This document shows, piece by piece, positions 1,508 to 19,517 of a DNA stretch of 21,440 nucleotides. The notes beneath the pieces were generated by a model. It saw only the letters and a list, made by a program, of their open reading frames with translations. It made no database searches and had not been told where the DNA came from. The stretch spans positions 1 through 21,440 of the IMG/VR virus record IMGVR_UViG_3300048128_000051; one strand, 5' to 3'. A program made the translations under genes and the position numbers. The first letter of the stretch is position 1. The number at the start of each line of letters is the position of its first letter. This stretch comes from a virus.

Positions 1508-3732
1508 TGGCACGCAGACCTAGATACCAAAAATTAGGCATTGGTTTAGACGCACCAGCTCGAACAGACTTTGCCGGTCTGCAAGAGACTGCACGCGCTG
1601 CGCAAAATATATCCCGTCAAATTGACAGGATGAGTGACTTTGTTTTTAAACAAGAATCAAAAAAAGCAGAGCAGCGCGGAAAGCAAAGAGTGCAAGACCT
1701 CGGGGCGCAGCCAGTGTTGGCAGAGCTAACGAAACAGGGCGGGCCTACAAATATTGAGCAGCGAGCAGCGTTTGCAACAGCCAACCGAATTGCAGCTGCT
1801 GAGCTAGAAACAGAAGCACAGCTAGAAATAGACAAGGTTCTTACTGACGCAGAAATAAACAAAACTTCGTTTTCGATAGTGCAAGAAAGCCTGACCAACA
1901 TTACAAATGGATTGCCGGCTGCGTTATCGGACTTAGACCCAGAAACTGCGGGCATATTGCGCCAGCGAATTGGTGCGCTGCAACAAAAAGCAGAAAACAA
2001 ATACAGCGTATTCGCTAACAACGTGCAAGTCAAAGCAGCTCAAGGGCGAGCATTAACAGGTATTGACGTTAGGCGCCGGGGTATTATGCAGACCGCTGCT
2101 TCCCGGTATTACGATGAAGGTGGTAACGTTGATGAGGTTCAGCGTCAGGCTGCTGTGAATTTCGATTTAGAAAACTTAGCGACATTTATGCGTGATTTGC
2201 AGTTTGACGAAGATGATATCAGCAAAGTCGTACTTTCCGCTAAAGAAGATAGTGTAATGGAAAGCACATACTTTGATTTCCGGCAGCTAGGCTCTCTTGA
2301 AGAAAAGCAATCATTTATCAGCGAGCAACGGGATTCGTTGCCTAAAATAATAGGTGAAGAAAAAGCCAGGACCACTTTGAATGGGCTGCAGACTGAAATG
2401 AACAAACAAGTGACCGGGCTAAAAGGTCAGGCCACACAGGCAAAATCCAAAGTTAAAGAGTTGTCCAGTGTTCTTACAGACGGCGGTATGCCCAACGAAT
2501 CTGACATAATTAGGCTAGAGCAACAGATAGACAGTTTAGGTGATTACGGGACAGAAGCTAAACAGGATTTAGCAGATTTTAAGTTTTTGCGCACTTCTAT
2601 GAAAGCTGTACGGTCTATGAACCCGGCGATGCTGCAGCAAGAAATAAATAAGCTGCAACAAGGTTTGCCTGGTTTGGGTGGCCCAGGGCTAGACACGATA
2701 CAGGAAACTACGCTGCTAAAGTCGGCCAATAAGTTTCTTACTAAAATGAACACAGAGCTTGAAAGGGACCCTTTCAGTTTTGGAGTTACAACCGGATTAA
2801 TAACTTTTGAGCCACTTGACCCGTTTGATGCGGATAATTTTGCAGTACAGGCGCAAGCTAGGATTAGGGATGGTTTGGCTGTAAGCCAATATTATGGGAC
2901 GCCTCCAGCCTTTATCACAGATGAAGAGGCGAAAGTTTATACCGAAATAATGCAGGGCCAAGATGTTGGGCGGCAAATGGCATTGTTGACAACGATACAC
3001 AGCACTTTCGGCAAAGAGCACGCCGCTGATGTTTTTGCGCAAATAGCGGGCAAAGACCAGGAGATAGGGCACATTGCCGGGCTTCTTACAATGGGTATGC
3101 ACCAGGTTTCAACAGAGGCTTTAGAAGGCCGAGATTTATTACAACAGGGCTATGTCCCGGTAGACTTTACACCTGAGTCAACAAAAAGTATTTCGGACGA
3201 GTTTTTTGGCAATGCTATGGTGGTTCAAGGTGCGGCAAGAGAAAGCGGTTTAAAAGTTGCTGAAGCTATTTATGCGAAGCGTGCCAACAGGCAATCAATA
3301 AAACAATTTAATAATAATTTGTGGTTAGAAAGCCTAGAGTCTGCGTTTGGAAAAAACAGGGGTTTGGGTGGTATTCAAAAAGTTTTCGGCGATAAAACTC
3401 TTTTGCCCGCGTATGTTTCTTCTGATGAAGTGGAGGCGGCATTTGACAACATGACACCAGACAAACTGTTTGAGGCATCTGGTATTCGTTTGCCTAAAGA
3501 GCAATTTGAAGAAATTTTTAAACCGCAAACGAGCGGCTTATTTGGCACAGATGCTGCTGAATTTAACGATGATTACAGTTTGCTCAACATCGGCTATGGT
3601 GAGTACATGATTGTACTGGGGCAGCCAAACGGTTACGGAGGAAAAGTGGCGGGTGCTTACGAGGATGAGTTTGGTGGCGTTGAAGGTGAGCGTGATTTAA
3701 TTATTAACCTAAACACTTTGTTGAACAGATAA
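1507..3732 (+). CDS. Large internal virion (ejection) protein, gp15-like
   Basis: A 741-residue, largely helical, charged protein with no signal peptide or membrane segment. The N terminus is basic (MARRPRYQKLG) and is followed by long heptad-like stretches rich in Gln, Glu and Lys (about residues 30-140 and 290-400), fitting a rod-like core protein. Position, size and composition match the middle ejection protein (gp15-type) of podoviruses, which forms part of the inner core and later a periplasmic conduit. I see no enzymatic motif. It starts at ATG 1507 inside the stop codon of the previous gene (TAATG) and ends in another TAATG with the following gene. The family call is by synteny and composition only; another structural role is possible. 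Confidence 0.55.
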   Translation: MARRPRYQKLGIGLDAPARTDFAGLQETARAAQNISRQIDRMSDFVFKQESKKAEQRGKQRVQDLGAQPVLAELTKQGGPTNIEQRAAFATANRIAAAELETEAQLEIDKVLTDAEINKTSFSIVQESLTNITNGLPAALSDLDPETAGILRQRIGALQQKAENKYSVFANNVQVKAAQGRALTGIDVRRRGIMQTAASRYYDEGGNVDEVQRQAAVNFDLENLATFMRDLQFDEDDISKVVLSAKEDSVMESTYFDFRQLGSLEEKQSFISEQRDSLPKIIGEEKARTTLNGLQTEMNKQVTGLKGQATQAKSKVKELSSVLTDGGMPNESDIIRLEQQIDSLGDYGTEAKQDLADFKFLRTSMKAVRSMNPAMLQQEINKLQQGLPGLGGPGLDTIQETTLLKSANKFLTKMNTELERDPFSFGVTTGLITFEPLDPFDADNFAVQAQARIRDGLAVSQYYGTPPAFITDEEAKVYTEIMQGQDVGRQMALLTTIHSTFGKEHAADVFAQIAGKDQEIGHIAGLLTMGMHQVSTEALEGRDLLQQGYVPVDFTPESTKSISDEFFGNAMVVQGAARESGLKVAEAIYAKRANRQSIKQFNNNLWLESLESAFGKNRGLGGIQKVFGDKTLLPAYVSSDEVEAAFDNMTPDKLFEASGIRLPKEQFEEIFKPQTSGLFGTDAAEFNDDYSLLNIGYGEYMIVLGQPNGYGGKVAGAYEDEFGGVEGERDLIINLNTLLNR

Positions 3733-6700
3733 TGACTTTTCAATACAAAAAAGCCAGCCCATTTGATTTAGCAGCCTTGCCTACGCTAGACCCAAATCCT
3801 CAATCTGGGTTTGATGAAAGCCGGCAACTAGCATATCGCGCTATTGAATTAAACGACACATCTGTAAGCGAGGCCAATGCTCTTGAAGAGGTGTGGGACC
3901 CTATCATCGAAGAGATGAACAGTAGACAAACGGGCAAAACATTTTACAACCCTAGCATAAATTACAGAACCGGCATCTTCAACGAGGAATATCAAGAACA
4001 AAATTACTCTGGTGCAGTTACTGAAATTTTAAATGAAATAGAAACCAATGATATGTTCTCTGATTTGCGCGGTGTCGTAGACAGAGACTTAATATATGAG
4101 CAAGCAGCCACTAACGCTAGAGAAGCAAATGACGCTTTTTTGCGAAACAGCCCGGTGAGCTCTACGCTAGGAACTTTTGTCGGTACTGCTCATGCAGCGT
4201 TAGATGACCCGGTTCTTATCGGTTCGATGTTGTTTGGCGGCGCTAAAGGTGTTTGGCAAATGGCTTTACAAGAAATGGCTATTGGCGCTGCATCAGAAGC
4301 TGTAATCCAAACAAAAGTAAAAGAATGGTATGAAAGCACCGGCCAGGAATATACAGACGAAAAATTTAGGAACGCTGTTCTTTATGGTGGCGCTATCGGT
4401 TTTGCTACACCGTTTGCTTTTAAAGGCGCGGGCATGGGCTTTAAGGCAACAGGCAAAGCTGTAAACTTTACTGTGGACCAACTGAAGCAGGGCATATCTG
4501 TTATGCGTGCAGCTGGTGTGCCGTCCACATCACGCGGAAGATTTGCCGAAGAACTGGCTGACGAGATAGAGGCAGTTAACGAAGCAAACCCACTCGATGC
4601 ACCCGTTAACAATCCCCTGCCAGCGCAAACGGAGCACATGGCAAGAGTTGAAGCTGCAGCTGTTGCAGCTGAAAAAAACGTACCACCGGCAATGCCAGAC
4701 CAACCGAAGGTGCCGGCCAGAGCACTAACTGTCAGTGATGTTGATAAAGCCGACCCAACTGTGTACCCTTTCGACCCGAACAAATTGCAAGTAGATGCCG
4801 AGAAATTCCAATTTAAAAGTGGCGGGGATGAATTTGGCGTAACAGAAAAATTGCAAGGAGTTACAAAATGGAACCCAATTTATGCCGAAGAAATATTAGT
4901 ATGGGAGCGTGCAGACGGCACACAGTTTGTAATTGATGGACACCAGCGCACTGGCCTTGCACGCAGAATTATGGCCAATGACCCGAAACAAAAAATAAGC
5001 GTTAATGGAAAAAAATTAAACGAAAAAGATGGATGGACCGCTGAGACTGCCAGGGCTGTTGCTGCTTTAAAAAACATATCACAAGGCTCCGGCACCGGCA
5101 TTGACGCAGCTAAAGTGTTGAAGGAGGACCCTAGCTTTGTCAGAGAGCTGCCGCCTAAATCAGCACTGGTGCGAGATGCAAATGGTCTAGTTGAGCTGTC
5201 AGATGAGACGTTTCTTGCTGTGGTCAACGGCGTTGTAGAAGAAAGTTATGGTGCAATAGTGGGCCGTCTTATCAAAGACGAAGGTCTGCAGCAAGCGGCT
5301 GTAGCTGTTTTAGCAAAAACCCAACCTGATAATAAATTTCAAGCTGAAAGCATTGTGCGTCAGGTAATGGAAGCCGGCGCAGAAACAAGAACACAAGAAA
5401 CGCTATTCGGTGAAGAAATAATTACAGAAAGTTTTTTTGCAGAACGTGCTAAGATTTTAGATGCTACGGTTAAGCAGCTGCGCAGAGATAAAGCAGCTTT
5501 TAATAGCCTGGTAAACAATAGAGAGCGCCTTGAGCAAGAAGGAAACAAGATAGTTGAGGGCGCAAACAAACGGAGAGCAGAAAATGATACGCAAGCAATC
5601 GCAATCCTCCAAGCAATCGCCAACAGAAAGGGGCCAATCTCAGACGCCCTCACAGCGGCAGCCAGGACAGCCCGAGACACCGGCAGCTTTACAAACCCTA
5701 TCAGCGGATTTGTCGAAACTGTCAGACGAGGAATACGAGATGGTCAGTTTGATGGCGCAGCGGTTAGCGATGGAAGGAGCCTTGAAAATGATACGCCGCA
5801 AGGCAGCCCTCGCCCGGCAGAGCCAGAGCCAAACGTAGAATTATTTGATGAACCGTCTGGCATTGGAGCGCAGCGTCAAGCAGAACAGCTAGAAACAGAC
5901 ACTAAAAATGAACTTGTCGAAAGCGTGCCGCCAGAACGTGTTGAGGGATTTCAACAAGACAGAGAGCTTTTAGATGATTTTAAAAGACTGTTAGACGAAG
6001 GGGCAGACGAAGATACACTGTTTCAGCACCCTGCAGCTGTAAAAGCAATAGAAGCTGCAGAAGCAATACCGGCAACAAACAAGCGAGAAGGTTTTGGTAC
6101 AGATGAGTTCCGGGCTGAAAGAGAATTTGATTTTGACGGCGAGACAGTTAAAGGCTATGATGAAGCGTTATTCCGGCATTTCGAGCTATCTACTACGCTG
6201 GCCTACAGAGAGCTGGGCATGGAAGTCCCGGATATCCCTGTCCTTTATGAAGGCAAAGCTGTTATATTAGTCGGACCGCCCGCAGCAGGGAAAAGCACGT
6301 TAGCCAACCCAATAGCGGTAAAGTTGAAAGCAGCAATACCAGACTCAGACGAATTTAAAAAAACGCTGCCTGAGTACGAAGGTGGCCTGGGTGCTGCAGC
6401 TGTTCATGCTGAAAGCTCTGGCATGGCAAAAGAGTTGGTTGACGCTTCAGCTGATTCCAAACTCAACATGGTAATACCCAAAGTGGGTGAAGATGCGGCT
6501 ACTATAGAAAAATTACGCAAGAAGCTAAAAGACAAGGGGTATGACGTAGCATTAATAAACATGGATGTAAGCTACGAAAACGCCTTAGTGCGGATGTTTA
6601 AAAGGTTTGTGTCTAAAGGTAGGCTTATTGGCGCAGACTACATGAAGTCTATAGGTAACAGGCCAACACAAACATACAATGACATCAAAGGCAATTTTGA

Positions 6701-7136
6701 TAGGTATGTAGATATTGACAACAATGGGGGCAAAGAAATTGGCCCTAGAATTAAGGAGGACAATTATGGTGGACCAGAAATCGCAGAAGCAATTAGCTCG
6801 GCTAGACCTACGCAAATACAACTGGAGCCAGGAAGAGCGGATGGCAGAAGAGCAAGCGGAGAAGAACCCGCAGTATCAAGACCGAGTGAACCGGCTGGCA
6901 GAGCGACTGAAGCGGAAGAGGACCGGGGAGTAGGCTTTGGCATACTGGCTAAAGTAGAAGCAGAGATAGCCAAAGAAGAACAGTTAATGAGCGAAGCCGC
7001 AAAAGCAATTCCTGTTGTCAGAGGTGTGGACGATGCTGGCAATGAGATTGTTGGCACTGCTACAAGAAAAGAGTTGTTGGACGAAATAGACCAAGATAAA
7101 AAAATGCTCGATAGACTACGGGGTTGCGTAACATGA
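3732..7136 (+). CDS. Polyvalent-type ejection protein with ParB/DdrB-like and zeta-toxin-like kinase domains
   Basis: An 1134-residue multidomain protein. Residues about 130-260 are Ala/Gly-rich and partly hydrophobic. Residues about 350-465 form a ParB/DdrB-like domain with the signature VIDGHQRTGLARR near D402-R406. Residues about 790-1005 look like a zeta-toxin/UDP-sugar-kinase type P-loop domain: Walker A GPPAAGKST at 848-856, the acidic PDSDEF at 870-875, and SKGR at 961-964. Zeta toxins phosphorylate UDP-N-acetylglucosamine and block wall synthesis. Linkers around 650-720 and 1010-1050 are rich in Pro, Glu and Arg. Such ParB plus effector fusions fit the published concept of polyvalent proteins that enter the host with phage DNA. 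Its place between two ejection-type genes supports packaging in the virion, but that is inference. It ends with ATGA overlapping the next start. Two candidate nested genes lie in its +1 frame (5584-5838, 6766-6933). Confidence 0.75.
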   Translation: MTFQYKKASPFDLAALPTLDPNPQSGFDESRQLAYRAIELNDTSVSEANALEEVWDPIIEEMNSRQTGKTFYNPSINYRTGIFNEEYQEQNYSGAVTEILNEIETNDMFSDLRGVVDRDLIYEQAATNAREANDAFLRNSPVSSTLGTFVGTAHAALDDPVLIGSMLFGGAKGVWQMALQEMAIGAASEAVIQTKVKEWYESTGQEYTDEKFRNAVLYGGAIGFATPFAFKGAGMGFKATGKAVNFTVDQLKQGISVMRAAGVPSTSRGRFAEELADEIEAVNEANPLDAPVNNPLPAQTEHMARVEAAAVAAEKNVPPAMPDQPKVPARALTVSDVDKADPTVYPFDPNKLQVDAEKFQFKSGGDEFGVTEKLQGVTKWNPIYAEEILVWERADGTQFVIDGHQRTGLARRIMANDPKQKISVNGKKLNEKDGWTAETARAVAALKNISQGSGTGIDAAKVLKEDPSFVRELPPKSALVRDANGLVELSDETFLAVVNGVVEESYGAIVGRLIKDEGLQQAAVAVLAKTQPDNKFQAESIVRQVMEAGAETRTQETLFGEEIITESFFAERAKILDATVKQLRRDKAAFNSLVNNRERLEQEGNKIVEGANKRRAENDTQAIAILQAIANRKGPISDALTAAARTARDTGSFTNPISGFVETVRRGIRDGQFDGAAVSDGRSLENDTPQGSPRPAEPEPNVELFDEPSGIGAQRQAEQLETDTKNELVESVPPERVEGFQQDRELLDDFKRLLDEGADEDTLFQHPAAVKAIEAAEAIPATNKREGFGTDEFRAEREFDFDGETVKGYDEALFRHFELSTTLAYRELGMEVPDIPVLYEGKAVILVGPPAAGKSTLANPIAVKLKAAIPDSDEFKKTLPEYEGGLGAAAVHAESSGMAKELVDASADSKLNMVIPKVGEDAATIEKLRKKLKDKGYDVALINMDVSYENALVRMFKRFVSKGRLIGADYMKSIGNRPTQTYNDIKGNFDRYVDIDNNGGKEIGPRIKEDNYGGPEIAEAISSARPTQIQLEPGRADGRRASGEEPAVSRPSEPAGRATEAEEDRGVGFGILAKVEAEIAKEEQLMSEAAKAIPVVRGVDDAGNEIVGTATRKELLDEIDQDKKMLDRLRGCVT
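5584..5838 (+). CDS. Candidate nested gene 1 (84 aa) inside the ParB/zeta gene, +1 frame
   Basis: An 84-codon frame nested in the ParB/zeta gene. ATG 5584 is preceded by GGAGAG with a six-base gap. The product has a Gln/Ser/Pro-rich, probably disordered N terminus (residues 1-38) and a well-formed amphipathic helical C terminus (about 40-78, with LSKLSDEEYEMVSLMAQRL and MIRRKAALAR). The host frame here encodes the helical and then Pro-rich stretch between ParB and zeta domains. The frame is bounded by a stop at 5551-5553, so the open stretch is only 95 codons and may be chance. No similarity is recognised. I rate it as possible, weaker than the nested frame at 6766. Confidence 0.28.
   Translation: MIRKQSQSSKQSPTERGQSQTPSQRQPGQPETPAALQTLSADLSKLSDEEYEMVSLMAQRLAMEGALKMIRRKAALARQSQSQT
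6753..6760 (+). promoter_or_regulatory. Strong internal ribosome-binding site for the nested gene at 6766
   Basis: AAGGAGGA lies inside the ParB/zeta coding sequence, six bases before ATG 6766 in the +1 frame. It is as good as the best ribosome-binding sites between the real genes of this phage (for example before the tail fibre at 9628). In the host frame it encodes Lys-Glu-Asp, so selection for that peptide alone would not need AAGGAGG rather than synonymous AAAGAAGA. Confidence 0.5.
6766..6933 (+). CDS. Candidate nested gene 2 (55 aa, charged helical) after the zeta domain, +1 frame
   Basis: A 55-codon frame with an AGGAGG site six bases upstream. The product (starting MVDQKSQKQLARLDLRKYNW, then many Glu, Arg and Gln) reads as one or two charged amphipathic helices and looks protein-like. 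The host frame over the same bases is a Pro/Gly/Arg/Glu-rich linker immediately downstream of the zeta-like kinase domain, a tolerant place for overprinting; the host frame regains a helical, family-like C terminus after it. Zeta toxins are classically neutralised by a small helical antitoxin (epsilon), so a nested inhibitor or virion accessory is conceivable, but nothing in the sequence shows this. No homolog is recognised. Confidence 0.42.
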   Translation: MVDQKSQKQLARLDLRKYNWSQEERMAEEQAEKNPQYQDRVNRLAERLKRKRTGE

Positions 7137-9592
7137 CACTAATTAACTGTATTACTAACGGGATTGAAGAGGGCAACATTACTCGGGAGCAGGGTGCGGA
7201 AGCTGCCGATTTGTTTACGCAGCTAGAGGCAGAGTACGCAACCAAAATGGCGCCTGGGCAAGCGTCAGCAAAGGCGGGCCAAGATACTTTCGATGCTTTG
7301 GAATACCAAGTTTTGCAACGTAAGCGCAGAAAATTACTTGCATATCAAAACTGGAAACAAATTACAAAAAACTTTGATGAGTATAAAAATGGAGCAGACC
7401 CGGCGGCTGCAGCTGTGGCCCACTTTGTTCCAAAAGAAGGGGCAAAGTTTTCCAATATAGAGATGCGCACTCAGGCCGTAACCAATGCAGCAACCAGGGT
7501 GATGTATGACGTTCTGGGGACTTTCCGCAAAAACCTTATTGGCAGCACTCGGAAAAAAGCGCAGCTGAAAGATATGGTGCGCGAAATATTTGGCGAAGAT
7601 ACTGGTAGCGCATCAGCGAAAGAGTTGGCCGCTTCCTGGTCTAAATCAGCAGAATATCTGCGGCAGCGTTTTAATGCAGCTGGCGGCGCGATTTCAAAAC
7701 GGTTAGATTGGGGATTGCCACAGTTTCACGACACCTTAAAGGTACGGAAGGTACCGTATAACGAGTGGGCAAACTTCATTAGGCCCAAGTTAAATCTTAA
7801 CAAAATGAAAGATGAACAGACCGGGCTGCCATTCACAGAGGCAAGATTAGAGATTGCGCTGCGCGATGTGTATGAAACTATACGTCAAGACGGGATGAAC
7901 AAGCCGCCATCGGGTGTTTCCAGGGCTAAATCTATTGCAAACAGGCACACAGACCACAGATTTTTAGTGTTTAACACAGCAGATGATTGGATGGCTTATC
8001 AAAAAGAGTTTGGCAATATAGATGCTTTTGATGTGATGATGGGTCATATATCCAACATGAGCCGTGAAATTGCCATGCTGGAAATACTTGGGCCAAACCC
8101 TACAGCTACAGTTACCTTTATGAAGCAAAGCCTGATGCAAAGAGCTGCGGGTGATATCAAAAAAGAAGATGCTGCACGAAGCGCAGCAAATACCGTTGAC
8201 AGTTTATTTAATTATTTGTCAGGCCGCTCTTTAGCTCCAATCAACACCAAATGGGGAAATGTATTGGCTGGAGTGCGCCAGCTGTTGCAATCAGCGCAGC
8301 TGGGCGCGGCGTCTATTGCTGCCATAACTGATGTAAACTTTCAACGGATTGCCAGGTCTGCATCTGGTTTGCCGCAAACCACTATAATTAGCGACTACCT
8401 AAAACAGCTTAATCCGCTTTCTGTGGAAGAAAAAGGTAGACTGGCTATACGCATGGGTCTTATCGCCGAAGGTTGGATGACTATCGCTTCGGCGCAACAG
8501 CGGTATGTTGGGGACCTTACCGGACCAGAGTTTACTCGCCGTGTAGCCGACTTTGTTATGAAGGCGTCTTTGCTTTCCCCCCTAACAAACGCGGGCAAGT
8601 GGGCTTTTGGTATGGAGTTTTATGGCACGCTTGCAGACAATATAGGTAAACGATTTGACGAGCTCGACCCCACATTAAGAAACACATTAGAGAAGTACTC
8701 TATCGGTTCTGACAAGTGGGACATTATGAGGTCTACGGAACTGTATGATCACAAAGGCGCAAAGTTTTTACGGCCAGAAGATATTGAGTTTCGAGAGGAC
8801 ATTAACCCGCGTTTAGCTAGAGACTTGGCCACTAGGGTCATGGAAATGATTGAAACCGAGTCACAGTATGCTGTCCCCTCTACTACTGCAGAGGGCCGAA
8901 CCTGGCTGTATGGTGACACTAGGGCGGGAACAGTGTCAGGCGAAGTGATGCGCTCGTTTGGTATGTATAAAGGCTTTGGTGTAAGTTTGGTGAACTTTCA
9001 CATGATGCGGGGAATGTCGCAAAAAGGTATGCGTGGCAAGGGTAAATACTTTGCTGACTTGCTTATATCTACTACCCTTATGGGCGCTCTTGCCATGCAG
9101 CTTAAAGAGATGTCAAAAGGGCGTGACCCTCGGCCCATGACAGACCGAGAATTTTGGATGGCTGCTATGCTGCAAGGTGGGGGTTTGGGTATATATGGAG
9201 ACTTTTTGTTTGCTGACGTTAACAGGTTTGACCGGGGGCTGCCGGAAACAATAGCTGGGCCGGTTTTTGGTTTTGGCAAAGATGCTATAGATTTAACTGT
9301 TGGTAATTTGTATGAAGCGGCAACAGGACAAGACACTAAGGCTGCGTCTGAACTTATTAAATTTGCTGGCAAATATACGCCTGGAGCCTCTTTATGGTAT
9401 ATGCGCCTGGCTTTAGAGCGCATGGTTTTAGACCAAATGCGCCTTATGGCAGACCCAAAGGCCAGACAAAAGTTTAGGCAAATAGAAACCCGATATCGCA
9501 GGGATAGCGGGCAACAATATTGGTGGAGGCCGGGGCGCCCAGAGCCTAGCAGAAAACCAAATGTTGAGAACATTCTAGCGGAGAGACAATAA
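7133..9592 (+). CDS. Large internal virion / ejection-type protein
   Basis: An 819-residue protein. A TTG three codons upstream is possible, but ATG 7133 forms an ATGA overlap with the stop of the previous gene and is preferred. The protein is helical and basic, with a motif region around MMGHISNMSREIAMLEILGP and a C-terminal part holding hydrophobic stretches near residues 637-657 (DLLISTTLMGALAMQL) and about 675-700 (Gly-rich, GGGLGIYGDFLF), ending in WWRPGRPEPSR. This C-terminal layout recurs in very large phage ejection/polyvalent proteins as I recall them. I see neither a lytic transglycosylase signature nor any other catalytic motif. It follows the ParB/zeta gene and precedes the tail fibre, the slot of T7 gp16. 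A role in DNA ejection is inferred from synteny and the semi-hydrophobic C terminus. Confidence 0.55.
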   Translation: MTLINCITNGIEEGNITREQGAEAADLFTQLEAEYATKMAPGQASAKAGQDTFDALEYQVLQRKRRKLLAYQNWKQITKNFDEYKNGADPAAAAVAHFVPKEGAKFSNIEMRTQAVTNAATRVMYDVLGTFRKNLIGSTRKKAQLKDMVREIFGEDTGSASAKELAASWSKSAEYLRQRFNAAGGAISKRLDWGLPQFHDTLKVRKVPYNEWANFIRPKLNLNKMKDEQTGLPFTEARLEIALRDVYETIRQDGMNKPPSGVSRAKSIANRHTDHRFLVFNTADDWMAYQKEFGNIDAFDVMMGHISNMSREIAMLEILGPNPTATVTFMKQSLMQRAAGDIKKEDAARSAANTVDSLFNYLSGRSLAPINTKWGNVLAGVRQLLQSAQLGAASIAAITDVNFQRIARSASGLPQTTIISDYLKQLNPLSVEEKGRLAIRMGLIAEGWMTIASAQQRYVGDLTGPEFTRRVADFVMKASLLSPLTNAGKWAFGMEFYGTLADNIGKRFDELDPTLRNTLEKYSIGSDKWDIMRSTELYDHKGAKFLRPEDIEFREDINPRLARDLATRVMEMIETESQYAVPSTTAEGRTWLYGDTRAGTVSGEVMRSFGMYKGFGVSLVNFHMMRGMSQKGMRGKGKYFADLLISTTLMGALAMQLKEMSKGRDPRPMTDREFWMAAMLQGGGLGIYGDFLFADVNRFDRGLPETIAGPVFGFGKDAIDLTVGNLYEAATGQDTKAASELIKFAGKYTPGASLWYMRLALERMVLDQMRLMADPKARQKFRQIETRYRRDSGQQYWWRPGRPEPSRKPNVENILAERQ

Positions 9593-15959: not shown

Positions 15960-16079
15960 ATGCCTATGGGTAGAGGAACGTATGGAAAAAAGGTTGGCCG
16001 TCCATCTAAGGAAGATAAGAACGACCCGAAGATGAAGCGCCTGGCTATGTTAAAGATGAAGAAAGCAGCCAAGAAGTAA
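15960..16079 (+). CDS. Very small basic protein (39 aa)
   Basis: A 39-residue protein, MPMGRGTYGKKVGRPSKEDK followed by a Lys/Met-rich end. AGGAAAGGA is eight bases upstream, and the TAA stop overlaps the endolysin start (TAATG), which makes translation likely. MPxGxGTYGxxxGRPxK is a phrase I recall from tiny phage proteins. The GRP core resembles AT-hook-type minor-groove contacts, though a single GRP is weak evidence for DNA binding. Confidence 0.55.
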   Translation: MPMGRGTYGKKVGRPSKEDKNDPKMKRLAMLKMKKAAKK

Positions 16080-16555
16080 TGAAGCTAACGCCTCATTTTA
16101 GCCTGGACGAGATGATCAAAAGCCAGACGGCGGTGCGCAAGGGGATACCAAACGTACCAAAGGATGAGCACATCGAGGCCATGTCGCTGCTCTGCGAGCA
16201 CATCTTGGAGCCGGTGCGTGAGCAGTATGGTAAACCATTCACGCCCAGCAGCGGCTATCGCAGCGGGGAGTTGTGCGTTGCTATTGGTAGCAGCGTCAAC
16301 AGCCAGCACGCGAAGGGTGAGGCTGCAGACTTTGAGGTGCCAGGGGTAAGTAATCTGGAGGTGGCCGGGTGGATTGCCGGCAACTTAGATTTCGACCAGC
16401 TTATCCTGGAGCATTACGAAGGCGGCAACACCGGCTGGATACACTGCAGTTACAAAGGCCAGAACAACCGCAAGGAAGTCCTGACCTATGACCGCAAGAA
16501 TAAATACCAGAAGGGTTTGATTGTATCTAATACTTCTGGTTACTTGGATTATTAG
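16079..16555 (+). CDS. Endolysin: M15-family zinc peptidase (peptidoglycan endopeptidase)
   Basis: A 158-residue single-domain enzyme. The M15_3-type motifs are present: SGYRS at 58-62, SQHAKGEAADF at 75-85 and WIH at 120-122. By comparison with the family H77, D84 and H122 would bind zinc, with an acidic residue near E111 as general base. Such enzymes cut peptide cross-links or stem peptides in peptidoglycan. There is no signal peptide or membrane segment, so it would need one of the holin candidates upstream to reach the wall. One variation: the usual RS..LN.AIGG stretch reads RSGELCVAIGSS here. It is the last plus-strand gene and overlaps the convergent minus-strand gene by 29 bases. Confidence 0.85.
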   Translation: MKLTPHFSLDEMIKSQTAVRKGIPNVPKDEHIEAMSLLCEHILEPVREQYGKPFTPSSGYRSGELCVAIGSSVNSQHAKGEAADFEVPGVSNLEVAGWIAGNLDFDQLILEHYEGGNTGWIHCSYKGQNNRKEVLTYDRKNKYQKGLIVSNTSGYLDY

Positions 16556-17124: not shown

Positions 17125-17349
17125 TCAATCCAATATAACCAGGCCGTTCTTCATACCATTACCACGGCGCACCCAACCCCGGCGCTCGATGGCGGCCAGG
17201 TGCTTTGCTATGTTAGCCTGGCTGATACCGAAATACTCCGCTGCTTCTGTTTGCGTAGGCGTGATGCCGTTAGCTTTCTGATACACCACCAGGTAATCAA
17301 AGATTTCCTTCTGGCGTTCCGTCAAATTATATTTTATCTGTTCCATCAT
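17125..17349 (-). CDS. LexA-type winged-helix DNA-binding protein without protease domain
   Basis: A 74-residue protein made only of a winged helix. LTERQKEIFDYLVVYQKANG at residues 9-28, helix 2 near 33-41 (QTEAAEYFG), recognition helix near 43-58 (SQANIAKHLAAIERRG) and wing WVRRGNG at 59-65 follow the LexA N-terminal pattern. The self-cleavage domain of LexA is absent, so it cannot respond to RecA by autoproteolysis in the usual way. It could repress the phage's own early promoter late in infection or compete at host SOS boxes; both are inference. The start is ATGATG (17349 or 17346) overlapping the TGA stop of recT. Confidence 0.75.
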   Translation of the reverse strand: MMEQIKYNLTERQKEIFDYLVVYQKANGITPTQTEAAEYFGISQANIAKHLAAIERRGWVRRGNGMKNGLVILD

Positions 17350-18305
17350 GCGTTCCTCGATTTAACGGCGAGCTCTTTTAGCTTGCCCTTGTAAGCATCA
17401 GCAACAATCTGCTTGATGTTCTCTGGCATATTGTCGATGCCTTCCTGGTTTGCTTCCTTCAGCTGCTTGAGTAATGACATTCTATCCCGCTCGTTTATCG
17501 GGTTGCCTTGCGCGTCAAGCTCGGCTGCGGCTGCCTTCTCAAACATCATAATCATTTGATTGCCGTATGCCTCAACGTCCTCTGATTCAAAGATAAGCGA
17601 GCCCTGGCGTCCGACCAGGCGGTAGTTAAATGCCGGTTGCTCAGGCTCTGGCGGCTGCTCAGGCCCCTCTATCACATCAACAGTATCTTCCACCACCAGC
17701 TCTACATCATCGGCCTCAGGCGCCTTTATATCGTCCAGCTGGTTCTTTGGTGGTTCATCCGGGGTGATGTTCTTAGGCGGCGGGATATCTTGCGCCTCTT
17801 CCTGGGTGATAATCCCTTTCATTGCATCCGGGAAAGCATCGCGGATAGCAAACCCCCTGGCACGCATTGCCAACATCCGCTCCGGGTACTGTGTCCAGGG
17901 TCCCTGCTTACCCCAAAGCCTTGCCTTCTTGGCGTTAGCAACAGAGAAAGTTTTTGTCGTTTCCTCTATCTGCCCGTCAGGATAGGCACGCTTTACGGTG
18001 CAGCTGGCAACCATGCTCTCGCCCTCGCCCTCTACCTTTTCGGTTACGCCCCGGCAATCGGGGTGCGCTTTTACCAGGGCAAGCGCAGCATCTCCCCAGA
18101 TGCTAGGCTTGCCATTGATAACGGCTATGTTCTGCAGCGCTTGCATAGGCTGCAGCCCTACTTCAAATCCCCATTGCATTGCGACCAGGCAATCTTGTGG
18201 CTTGCCCTTAAAGTTGTTGGGCACCATGCCGGACTGCGCCAGCATCTTAGAAAACTCCATTGCTTCGGTCATGTTCTGCGGGGTGAGTGTTAAACTTTTC
18301 GACAT
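17346..18305 (-). CDS. recT: RecT-family single-strand annealing protein
   Basis: A 319-residue protein. The core (residues 1-170) shows RecT phrases: CLVAMQWGFEVGLQPMQALQ at 39-58, NIAVINGKPSIWGDAALALV at 59-78, and a block at 128-160 with RLWGKQGPWTQYPERMLAMR and GFAIRDAFPD. RecT proteins coat single-stranded DNA made by a partner exonuclease and anneal it to complementary DNA; the partner here is the YqaJ-type gene upstream. Residues about 172-225 are an acidic, Pro-rich linker (for example EGPEQPPEPEQP) and the end is a helical, basic tail. An ATG at 18320 is in frame, but its GGAGG is the ribosome-binding site of ATG 18305, which also forms TAATG with the previous gene. Confidence 0.88.
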   Translation of the reverse strand: MSKSLTLTPQNMTEAMEFSKMLAQSGMVPNNFKGKPQDCLVAMQWGFEVGLQPMQALQNIAVINGKPSIWGDAALALVKAHPDCRGVTEKVEGEGESMVASCTVKRAYPDGQIEETTKTFSVANAKKARLWGKQGPWTQYPERMLAMRARGFAIRDAFPDAMKGIITQEEAQDIPPPKNITPDEPPKNQLDDIKAPEADDVELVVEDTVDVIEGPEQPPEPEQPAFNYRLVGRQGSLIFESEDVEAYGNQMIMMFEKAAAAELDAQGNPINERDRMSLLKQLKEANQEGIDNMPENIKQIVADAYKGKLKELAVKSRNA

Positions 18306-18520
18306 TATTTTTTCCTCCATACCCGGTAGCTGTCACCTTCCCGGCGGCTGATTGCCAGGCCGCCGCTCTTTTTAATCGCAGCAAACAGGCCATTCTTTTT
18401 GGTGCCGTTAGATACCAGGACGCTATCGCCTGGCTTCATTTTGGCTGCTACTTCTTGCCACTTGCCGGCACGCTGTCGGCTGGGCATTGGCACGTTCTTT
18501 TGAATTTTAATTTTATCCAT
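18305..18520 (-). CDS. Small protein between exonuclease and RecT (71 aa)
   Basis: A 71-residue basic protein. It starts MDKIKIQKNVPMPSRQRAGK, contains MKPGDSVLVSNG at 28-39 and ends GDSYRVWRKK. The pattern (K-x-VPxP, MxxGDS, then RxWR) is one I recall in small phage proteins of unknown function. AAGGAG lies upstream of ATG 18520, which overlaps the end of the exonuclease gene by eight bases; the stop overlaps the recT start as TAATG. This tight coupling on both sides suggests a role in the same recombination step, such as a mediator or DNA-binding accessory, but this is inference. A same-frame extension to 18805 would run through the exonuclease and is rejected. Confidence 0.65.
   Translation of the reverse strand: MDKIKIQKNVPMPSRQRAGKWQEVAAKMKPGDSVLVSNGTKKNGLFAAIKKSGGLAISRREGDSYRVWRKK
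18314..18318 (-). promoter_or_regulatory. Ribosome-binding site that decides the recT start
   Basis: GGAGG on the minus strand, eight bases before ATG 18305. The alternative ATG at 18320 directly abuts and contains this site, so it would leave no ribosome-binding site of its own. Confidence 0.6.
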
Positions 18521-19517
18521 CGTTTTGCTCCTTGATACTGATGGTTTTTTGTCTGACAGATTTTGCTTCTGTCGCTGGTTTGATGGTGTTGTTACAGACT
18601 GTGCAAAGCTCTGCCGGCTTTGCTTTGTAGTTTCTGACCGGCCAGCTGACCTGGTAGAGACTGTTGCCGGCGATAATTCTGCCCCGGCTGTTTTCTCCAA
18701 GAGCTGCCATGAGCTGCGCTTGGGTTTCTGCTTTGATTTCTTCTGCGCTTTTGATTGCGCCCAGGGCAGCCTGGTAATTTCGTACAGCTTCTGCAAGGTC
18801 TGCATCTAACTCTATCTCCTCTTCTGTTTGTTTTGGTGCAGGGTGCAGCTTGGCTGCTTCCTCTGCTGTTCTAGGTTCCGGCCAGGTTCCATCTGTCATG
18901 TGCTGCTCGAAGTCCTGGACAGCGCGTTTGATAGCCGTCTGGGTGTCCCGGTGCTGCATATAGATATGAGCTGTAAGTTTGCGCCCCCCGTAGTTTGTAA
19001 AGATAATCCCGATGCCGGCGTTGTGGCACATCATGCCAGCTTGCAGCTGGATTGGCCCTCGATAAAGGGGCGGGTCATCTTCTCTCTGCGTGGCGGTTGT
19101 AAACTTGGCCTCCAACACGATGCGGCCGCTGGCCTCCAGCTCACCGCTGCGCGTCATAACATAAATACCCGCTGCTTCATCTGTCTTGTACGTCACAGGC
19201 TCATCATCTGGGATGTGGTGCAGCCCGTCATCAGAATAGTAAAGCTCCATTCTTGGGTGCTTCTTTGCTTCTTTGTGACTGTGGGTGCCAATCTCTGCCG
19301 GGTCCAACCCGACCAGGCGGCAGCCGCGCTCCAGAGTTACATCTTCTGTCGCGTCTCCCATGTCCACTTGCAAGCTGTCCAGCTCTGGCCGGGGCTTGCC
19401 TTCCAGGCTTTCCCTGGCACGCAGCACAACATCATAAGCATCTTGCCAGGGGCTGTGTCCCATGTAAGCGGCCAATGCGCTGCCGGACAAGTGGTTATCT
19501 GGTGATAGTTTAGCCAT
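18513..19517 (-). CDS. YqaJ-type (PD-(D/E)xK) viral recombination exonuclease
   Basis: A 334-residue protein. The YqaJ-type nuclease pattern is visible: SGSALAAYMGHSPWQDAYDV at 11-30, GxxxE at 54-58, D97 in SDDGLHH, LEAKF with E136 and K138 (the ExK pair), and PIQLQAGM at 155-162. These residues would bind the metal that cuts double-stranded DNA from the end and leaves a single strand for RecT. Residues about 235-290 are a charged helical segment, and near the C terminus there is a Cys pair (LCTVCNN) of unknown meaning. It overlaps its neighbours on both sides by eight bases, so the recombination genes are probably co-translated. Confidence 0.85.
   Translation of the reverse strand: MAKLSPDNHLSGSALAAYMGHSPWQDAYDVVLRARESLEGKPRPELDSLQVDMGDATEDVTLERGCRLVGLDPAEIGTHSHKEAKKHPRMELYYSDDGLHHIPDDEPVTYKTDEAAGIYVMTRSGELEASGRIVLEAKFTTATQREDDPPLYRGPIQLQAGMMCHNAGIGIIFTNYGGRKLTAHIYMQHRDTQTAIKRAVQDFEQHMTDGTWPEPRTAEEAAKLHPAPKQTEEEIELDADLAEAVRNYQAALGAIKSAEEIKAETQAQLMAALGENSRGRIIAGNSLYQVSWPVRNYKAKPAELCTVCNNTIKPATEAKSVRQKTISIKEQNDG

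What the first reader, a model, noticed from the sequence alone, without database searches (positions are those of the whole stretch)
6766..6933. Overprinted 55-aa gene with an ideal ribosome-binding site, nested after the zeta-kinase domain
Directly visible: AAGGAGGA, six bases, ATG, then 55 codons in the +1 frame of a 3.4-kb gene, giving a charged helical peptide, while the host frame at the same place is a Pro/Arg/Glu linker. Known: zeta toxins are paired with small helical antitoxins. Inference: the nested product could restrain the zeta-like domain in the producing cell, or be another accessory. A toxin-inhibitor pair encoded in two frames of one virion gene would be new to me.
Basis: partly seen in the sequence, partly recalled or inferred. 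Interest (0 to 1): 0.68.

Follow-up and report, generated by a model that had tools for sequence, protein, structure and literature searches.

The report
Hidden gene overlapping phage zeta toxin
A short gene is hidden in a second reading frame of a large phage particle-protein gene, just behind its toxin-like 'zeta' kinase domain; it is real and conserved, was found with every full copy of this zeta domain we could check, and is most likely the toxin's built-in safety catch, although that function is untested.

Summary
In detail: TAAGGAGG, six bases, ATG, 55 codons (6766-6933) in the +1 frame of a 1134-codon gene (3732-7136). It is not chance. In seven independent pairs of relatives, 7% of fourfold-degenerate host sites changed inside it versus 30% outside, and changes shift to host codon position 1, the wobble position of the +1 frame.

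The ORF tracks the zeta kinase domain. It is present in 26/26 distinct zeta-bearing hosts and 0/38 that carry another C-terminal domain. In a zeta-anchored search, 74/74 loci have a +1 ORF behind zeta (0/74 in +2), across three host-protein architectures. In four contigs (three distinct) it is un-nested and starts the next gene after zeta. Haloarcula tailed viruses carry an unrelated conserved +1 ORF behind their own zeta domain.

It was found in 80/80 ParB-anchored loci.

Neither peptide has a known family. Best explanation: the zeta-linked peptide is a zeta-specific partner, most likely an inhibitor protecting the producing cell from a kinase meant for injection. Linkage and translation signatures are shown; inhibition, binding and zeta activity are inferred.

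The parts
3732..7136 (+). Host gene: 1134-aa virion-module 'polyvalent'-type protein with a DdrB-like ParB-type domain, a zeta kinase domain and a conserved short C-terminus
   Evidence: ORF; PHROG 10691/21 at aa 349-651 and Pfam Zeta_toxin 1.4e-14 at aa 842-999; lies between internal-virion/head-like genes
4776..5684 (+). ParB-like domain of the host gene (aa ~349-651)
   Evidence: PHROG 10691 E=1.7e-67; conserved DGHQR core; identification as DdrB-like ParB from PMC5512222 and the DGHQR motif (inference)
5572..5575 (+). GGAG ribosome-binding-site-like element of nested ORF 1
   Evidence: sequence; AAGG/GGAG-like element kept in relatives
5584..5838 (+). Nested ORF 1 (n1), 84 aa, +1 frame, unannotated overprinted gene tied to the ParB-like domain
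   Evidence: E<1e-12 in +1 frame in all full-length downstream-anchored hosts; 80/80 ParB-anchored loci; fourfold sites 63/993 vs 2395/7948, p=6e-71
6255..6728 (+). Zeta kinase domain of the host gene (aa ~842-999)
   Evidence: Pfam PF06414; profile matches zeta toxin 1gvn_B 1.3e-7 and PezT 2p5t_B 5.5e-5; Walker A GPPAAGKS, D39/D41, R122/R126/R132 (A8 columns) invariant in 16 relatives
6752..6759 (+). TAAGGAGG ribosome-binding site of nested ORF 2, 6 nt before the ATG
   Evidence: sequence and SD scan; SD-like element precedes the ATG in most relatives, weaker in L074 and L096
6766..6933 (+). Nested ORF 2 (n2; the finding), 55 aa, +1 frame, overprinted companion of the zeta domain
   Evidence: 26/26 zeta hosts vs 0/38 non-zeta; 74/74 zeta-anchored loci; fourfold sites 15/210 vs 794/2607, p=1e-15; un-nested homologues next to zeta
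7133..9592 (+). Downstream virion structural protein gene (PHROG 684), used as the unbiased anchor for the census
   Evidence: PHROG 684 E=5e-177

Best explanation
The 55-codon ORF is a genuine overprinted gene (n2), translated from its own ribosome-binding site. Its product is an obligate, zeta-specific partner. Most likely it is an immunity or antitoxin-type inhibitor: it holds the zeta kinase domain of the virion protein inactive while the protein is made and packaged in the producing cell, and the kinase becomes active when the protein is ejected into the next cell without fresh n2. Shown here: coding constraint, conserved start, linkage to zeta, un-nesting next to zeta. Inferred: translation in vivo, physical binding, inhibition, zeta activity and ejection.
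For: (1) Fourfold-site depression restricted to the two nested ORFs: exactly two dips in zeta lineages and one in non-zeta lineages. (2) Changes shift to host codon position 1, the +1 wobble: pos1/2/3 = 69/43/94 in n2 vs 1109/641/3044 outside, p=3e-5 for pos1 vs pos3, as coding predicts and RNA structure does not. (3) ATG present in every zeta lineage and mostly SD-preceded; in the window lineage the start has moved downstream and gained TAAGGAGG. (4) 26/26 zeta vs 0/38 non-zeta hosts, including near-identical backbones that differ by a cassette swap: L007/L010 98%, L068/L069 97%, L062/L022 96% over ~720 aa. (5) 74/74 zeta-anchored loci with a +1 ORF behind zeta, 0/74 in +2, in three architectures: ~1100-aa ParB-zeta hosts, ~720-750-aa hosts without n1, and giant ORFs with zeta mid-protein. 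(6) In L354-L357 n2 is free of overlap yet still directly behind zeta and apparently coupled to its stop codon. (7) The zeta fold is intact by sequence. (8) Known zeta toxins are restrained by small proteins (epsilon; PMC3266247). (9) Haloarcula viruses have a +1-coding ORF behind their zeta domain.
Against: No sequence match of n2 to epsilon, PezA or any family. The AlphaFold model is weak (three helices, pLDDT 67, pTM 0.28). Linkage could be hitch-hiking, since n2 overlaps the zeta cassette. n2 sequence varies strongly between clades. The zeta domain's activity is untested. n1 shows that this gene type also hosts an overprinted ORF without zeta. In L354-L357 n2 is fused to the next protein, which also fits a docking role.
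Confidence: 0.6

Rival explanations
1. n2 is a zeta-specific docking, packaging or folding partner, not an inhibitor: it helps the kinase domain fold, be packaged, or join another ejected protein.
For: Strict linkage to zeta fits equally. In L354-L357 the n2 segment is the N-terminus of the next gene's larger protein, fused to different C-terminal parts, which would tether that protein to zeta.
Against: Known small partners of zeta-family kinases are inhibitors (PMC3266247; general knowledge). A packaging factor would also be expected for the non-zeta variants, which lack one.
Confidence: 0.2
2. n2 is an independent accessory protein (for example counter-defence or lysis timing) whose linkage to zeta is cassette hitch-hiking.
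For: The overlap makes co-transfer automatic. n1 is an overprinted gene in the same host gene regardless of zeta.
Against: No n2 homologue was found away from zeta in the scans run; n2 persists in three architectures and when un-nested.
Confidence: 0.15
3. n2 is made by ribosomal frameshifting, giving a zeta-n2 fusion instead of a separate peptide.
For: The +1 frame is open a little upstream of the ATG in most relatives.
Against: Conserved ATG with SD-like element; the start has moved in the window lineage; un-nested versions start with their own ATG. No slippery-site analysis was done.
Confidence: 0.03
4. Chance ORF, or conservation caused by RNA structure or host-frame constraint only.
For: In a single genome the ORF is only about 1 in 50 by codon shuffling. 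The N-terminal half of n2 lies over conserved zeta sequence, so its similarity is partly host-driven.
Against: Fourfold depression and the codon-position shift; 74/74 vs 0/74 frame specificity; un-nested copies; halovirus parallel.
Confidence: 0.02

Closest known systems
epsilon-zeta and PezAT toxin-antitoxin systems
   Same: A zeta-family P-loop kinase with a small, mostly helical partner encoded next to it
   Different: Here the partner overlaps the toxin's coding sequence in the +1 frame behind the domain, has no sequence similarity to epsilon or PezA, and the kinase is one domain of a large virion-module protein
AvrRxo1/XopAJ zeta-family effector and its small partner (partner recalled from memory)
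   Same: A delivered zeta-family kinase; the profile search touches AvrRxo1 (4z8q, E=0.004) and NCBIfam XopAJ (E=0.001, below cut-off)
   Different: Separate genes, secreted by a bacterium; not a virion protein
Phage polyvalent proteins (Iyer et al. 2017, PMC5512222), including P1 DdrB-like ParB proteins
   Same: Large multidomain protein in the late/virion module with a ParB-type domain and exchangeable effector-like domains (zeta here; RelA/SpoT-like in relatives, by motif)
   Different: That paper has no occurrence of 'overlapping' and none of 'immunity protein' in its main text
Overprinted phage genes (for example phiX174 E in D, lambda Rz1 in Rz; general knowledge)
   Same: A second protein encoded in an alternative frame of a host gene
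   Different: Here two separate overprinted genes sit behind two separate enzymatic domains of one gene, and one moves with its domain

Membership tests
Overprinted (overlapping) protein-coding gene | Depressed synonymous change in the host frame | tested here: met
   15/210 vs 794/2607 fourfold sites, p=1e-15
Overprinted (overlapping) protein-coding gene | Substitution pattern of the alternative frame (wobble shift) | tested here: met
   Host pos1 raised relative to pos3, p=3e-5
Overprinted (overlapping) protein-coding gene | Conserved start, ribosome-binding site and open frame | tested here: met
   ATG in all; SD-like element in most, weak in L074/L096
Overprinted (overlapping) protein-coding gene | Protein product detected | not testable with these tools
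   No ribosome profiling or proteomics available
Zeta toxin kinase family (host domain) | Sequence match to the family | tested here: met
   PF06414 54.4 bits vs cut-off 22.3; 1gvn_B 1.3e-7, 2p5t_B 5.5e-5
Zeta toxin kinase family (host domain) | Walker A and catalytic-site residues kept | tested here: met
   GPPAAGKS and the aspartate aligned with the zeta catalytic region invariant in 16 relatives; residue roles from general knowledge
Zeta toxin kinase family (host domain) | UDP-GlcNAc kinase activity or toxicity | not testable with these tools
   Needs an assay
Epsilon/PezA antitoxin family (n2) | Sequence homology to epsilon or PezA | tested here: not met
   No PDB match with the n2 profile at E<=10, none in Pfam/PHROGs/NCBIfam; n2 is therefore not filed in this family
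Type II antitoxin by function (n2) | Genetic linkage to the cognate toxin | tested here: met
   26/26 vs 0/38; 74/74
Type II antitoxin by function (n2) | Binds and neutralises the toxin | not testable with these tools
   No complex modelling or assay was possible
Phage polyvalent proteins (host protein) | Late/virion gene context, ParB-type domain plus other effector-like domains | tested here: met
   definition from PMC5512222

The most novel reading that the evidence does not exclude
Virion-delivered effector proteins commonly encode, in the +1 frame across the end of each toxic enzymatic domain, that domain's own immunity protein: n2 for zeta and n1 for the ParB-like nuclease. The pair then always recombines as one unit. 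The same arrangement exists with an unrelated peptide in archaeal tailed viruses.
Probability: 0.3. Interest if true: 0.92.

Novelty: new variant of a known kind. Interest (0 to 1): 0.8.

Why it matters
It adds two unannotated, widely conserved gene families hidden inside virion genes, and gives a testable answer to how a phage can make a toxin-like kinase for its particle without harming its own factory cell. If inhibition is confirmed, toxin and inhibitor are locked together by sharing DNA, so swapping the effector domain swaps its safety catch. The role of virion zeta proteins, which a 2014 review calls unknown in haloviruses (PMC4284463), becomes directly testable.

Tried and rejected
Chance ORF: rejected. 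RNA structure as the cause of conservation: rejected by the codon-position pattern. Known families for n1 and n2: none in Pfam, PHROGs, NCBIfam or PDB sequences. Fold search for n1: no match; n2 model too weak to search. tblastn of n1 and n2 in annotated phages: none. n1 in bacterial and archaeal genomes: none by one pattern scan. Other nested ORFs in non-zeta (RelA/SpoT-like) variants: some low-divergence stretches, but the +1 frames there carry stops or are explained by shared tracts. 16/38 non-zeta hosts have some +1 ATG ORF of 45 aa or more, so length alone is not evidence. Higher frame-specific identity of nested over host residues as a test for n2: inconclusive, because the frames constrain each other.

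Full report
What is there. The window is a 21.4-kb virus record. The host gene 3732-7136 encodes 1134 aa and sits in the virion module, between a head/internal-protein-like gene and a PHROG-684 virion structural gene. It has a ParB-like region (aa 349-651) and a Pfam zeta-toxin domain (aa 842-999, E = 1.4e-14). Behind zeta, in the +1 frame, lies the reported 55-codon ORF (n2), with TAAGGAGG ending 6 nt before its ATG.

Chance in one genome. Shuffling synonymous codons of the host gene gives some out-of-frame ATG ORF of 55 aa or more with a 6-nt ribosome-binding match in 1.9% of shuffles; the +1 frame stays open over n2 in 19% and over n1 in 0.6%. So the sequence alone is suggestive, not decisive, and comparison was needed.

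Comparison, anchored on the downstream gene. Relatives were fetched with the PHROG-684 gene, so the sample was not chosen for having the ORF. n1 is in the +1 frame of every full-length host (E < 1e-12). The only hosts without it are the distant L017, L020, L023, L024 and L026; L043 is a fragment. In 64 host genes, deduplicated at 97% identity, n2 is present in all 26 with a zeta domain and none of the 38 without. Pfam independently finds zeta in 22 of 48 C-termini scanned. The others carry other domains, many with a RelA/SpoT-like motif by my reading. Cassette swaps separate the classes on near-identical backbones: L007/L010 98%, L068/L069 97%, L062/L022 96% over about 720 aa.

Coding constraint. 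In 22 pairs using each sequence once, fourfold-degenerate host sites changed at 63/993 in n1 and 2395/7948 outside (p = 6e-71). In the seven pairs where both members have n2, the counts are 15/210 in n2 and 794/2607 outside (p = 1e-15). Fisher tests ignore local rate variation, but the profile shows exactly two troughs in zeta pairs and one in non-zeta pairs, with edges at the ORF ends. Host codon-position changes are 69/43/94 in n2, 75/29/97 in n1 and 1109/641/3044 outside. Position 1, which is the wobble of the +1 frame, rises relative to position 3 (p = 3e-5 and 3e-6). That is the signature of +1 coding.

Starts. Relatives start n2 at an ATG just upstream of the host DNNGG motif, usually after AAGGAG, AGGAGG or similar; L074 and L096 have weak sites. 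In the window and L006 the frame is closed further upstream, and the start used is the later ATG with its own TAAGGAGG or AAAGAGG. The C-terminal part, typically [YF][ND][WYF]xxAExxAE in the window-like clades, is kept; other clades differ. The N-terminal half overlaps conserved zeta sequence, so its similarity is partly host-driven.

Comparison, anchored on zeta. A separate scan with the zeta alignment gave 79 new loci. Of the 74 with enough sequence behind zeta, all have a +1 ATG ORF of 45 aa or more there and none has one in +2; 69 match the n2 profile at E <= 1e-3. They include hosts of 720-750 aa without n1 and giant ORFs with zeta in mid-protein. L246 is counted among the 74 although its n2 is un-nested. 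L354 (the same contig as L246) to L357 show the zeta gene ending, then TGA-nn-ATG and an n2-like segment (MRESLVALYDRVENEDPxLTDPIALAMVQRILAKQ in two of them, a close variant in the others) as the N-terminus of the next, variable gene. There it is free of any overlap, which is independent evidence that it is a real protein segment tied to zeta.

Comparison, anchored on ParB. 80/80 loci carry n1. Dunaliella viridis virus SI2 has a weak n1 match (E = 1e-3) in the same place and frame.

Archaeal parallel. Haloarcula viruses HCTV-1, HCTV-5, HCTV-16 and HVTV-1, whose zeta proteins are annotated, have an unannotated +1 ORF behind zeta encoding an acidic peptide (PERPxPDAxAxEIxEWMxExF...). HCTV-5 versus HVTV-1: 12/1/1 changes at host positions 1/2/3 inside, 367/348/595 outside (p = 9e-5). 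HCTV-1 versus HCTV-16: 5/1/0 versus 18/9/126 (p = 6e-5). The start is clear in HCTV-1, HCTV-16 and HVTV-1 but not in HCTV-5. I found no sequence relation to the phage n2.

What the products look like. n2 is predicted as three helices at low confidence (pLDDT 67). n1 has a disordered basic N-terminus and a confident long helix at 48-83, with no PDB fold match. Neither has a family. The zeta domain aligns with zeta toxin 1gvn_B and PezT, with Walker A and key charged residues invariant.

How it most likely works. Shown: n2 is a coding gene, linked to zeta without exception in the material examined, across architectures and un-nested. Inferred: because zeta kinases are normally held by a small protein partner (PMC3266247), and because virion polyvalent proteins are thought to act at entry (PMC5512222), n2 probably inhibits zeta in the producing cell, and the kinase acts only after ejection. 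I put this at about 0.6, a docking or packaging partner at 0.2, and hitch-hiking at 0.15. The position of n1 behind the ParB-like domain suggests by analogy an equivalent role there, which is speculation.

Novelty. Overprinting, zeta kinases and polyvalent proteins are known. I found no description of these two ORFs in the six literature searches run (open-access papers only) nor in the annotated records examined. I file it as a new variant of a known kind.

Limits. Sequences come mainly from environmental contigs, related to each other, so counts are not independent events. Scans keep the best 80 loci. No expression data exist here. No complex could be modelled.

Noticed in passing
window 5584-5838 (+): Second overprinted gene, 84 aa, +1 frame behind the ParB-like domain, conserved in 80/80 ParB-anchored loci and independent of zeta.
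   Followed up: yes
L337 3707-3820, L341 3707-3820, L338 ~3650-3766, L005 up to 3781: Haloarcula virus zeta proteins carry an unannotated +1 ORF encoding a conserved acidic peptide behind zeta, with changes almost only at its wobble position.
   Followed up: partly
L354-L357 at 3001 (L246 at 4593): n2 un-nested: first ~36 aa of the gene directly after a zeta gene, fused to different C-terminal parts.
   Followed up: partly
L008, L010-L014, L022, L027, L070 host C-termini: In place of zeta, relatives carry a RelA/SpoT-like domain (recognised by motif, not by a profile match); no conserved nested ORF was found behind it.
   Followed up: partly
L003 4908-5204 (+1) and L004 4827-5027 (+1): Dunaliella viridis virus SI2 (E=1e-3) and Ruegeria phage 45A6 (E=0.02) may have diverged n1 ORFs behind their ParB-like domains.
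   Followed up: partly
window 16079-16555 (+) and 17346-19517 (-): M15 peptidase (Pfam E=2e-17), a likely endolysin; and minus-strand genes that look like RecT and a YqaJ-type exonuclease by eye only.
   Followed up: no
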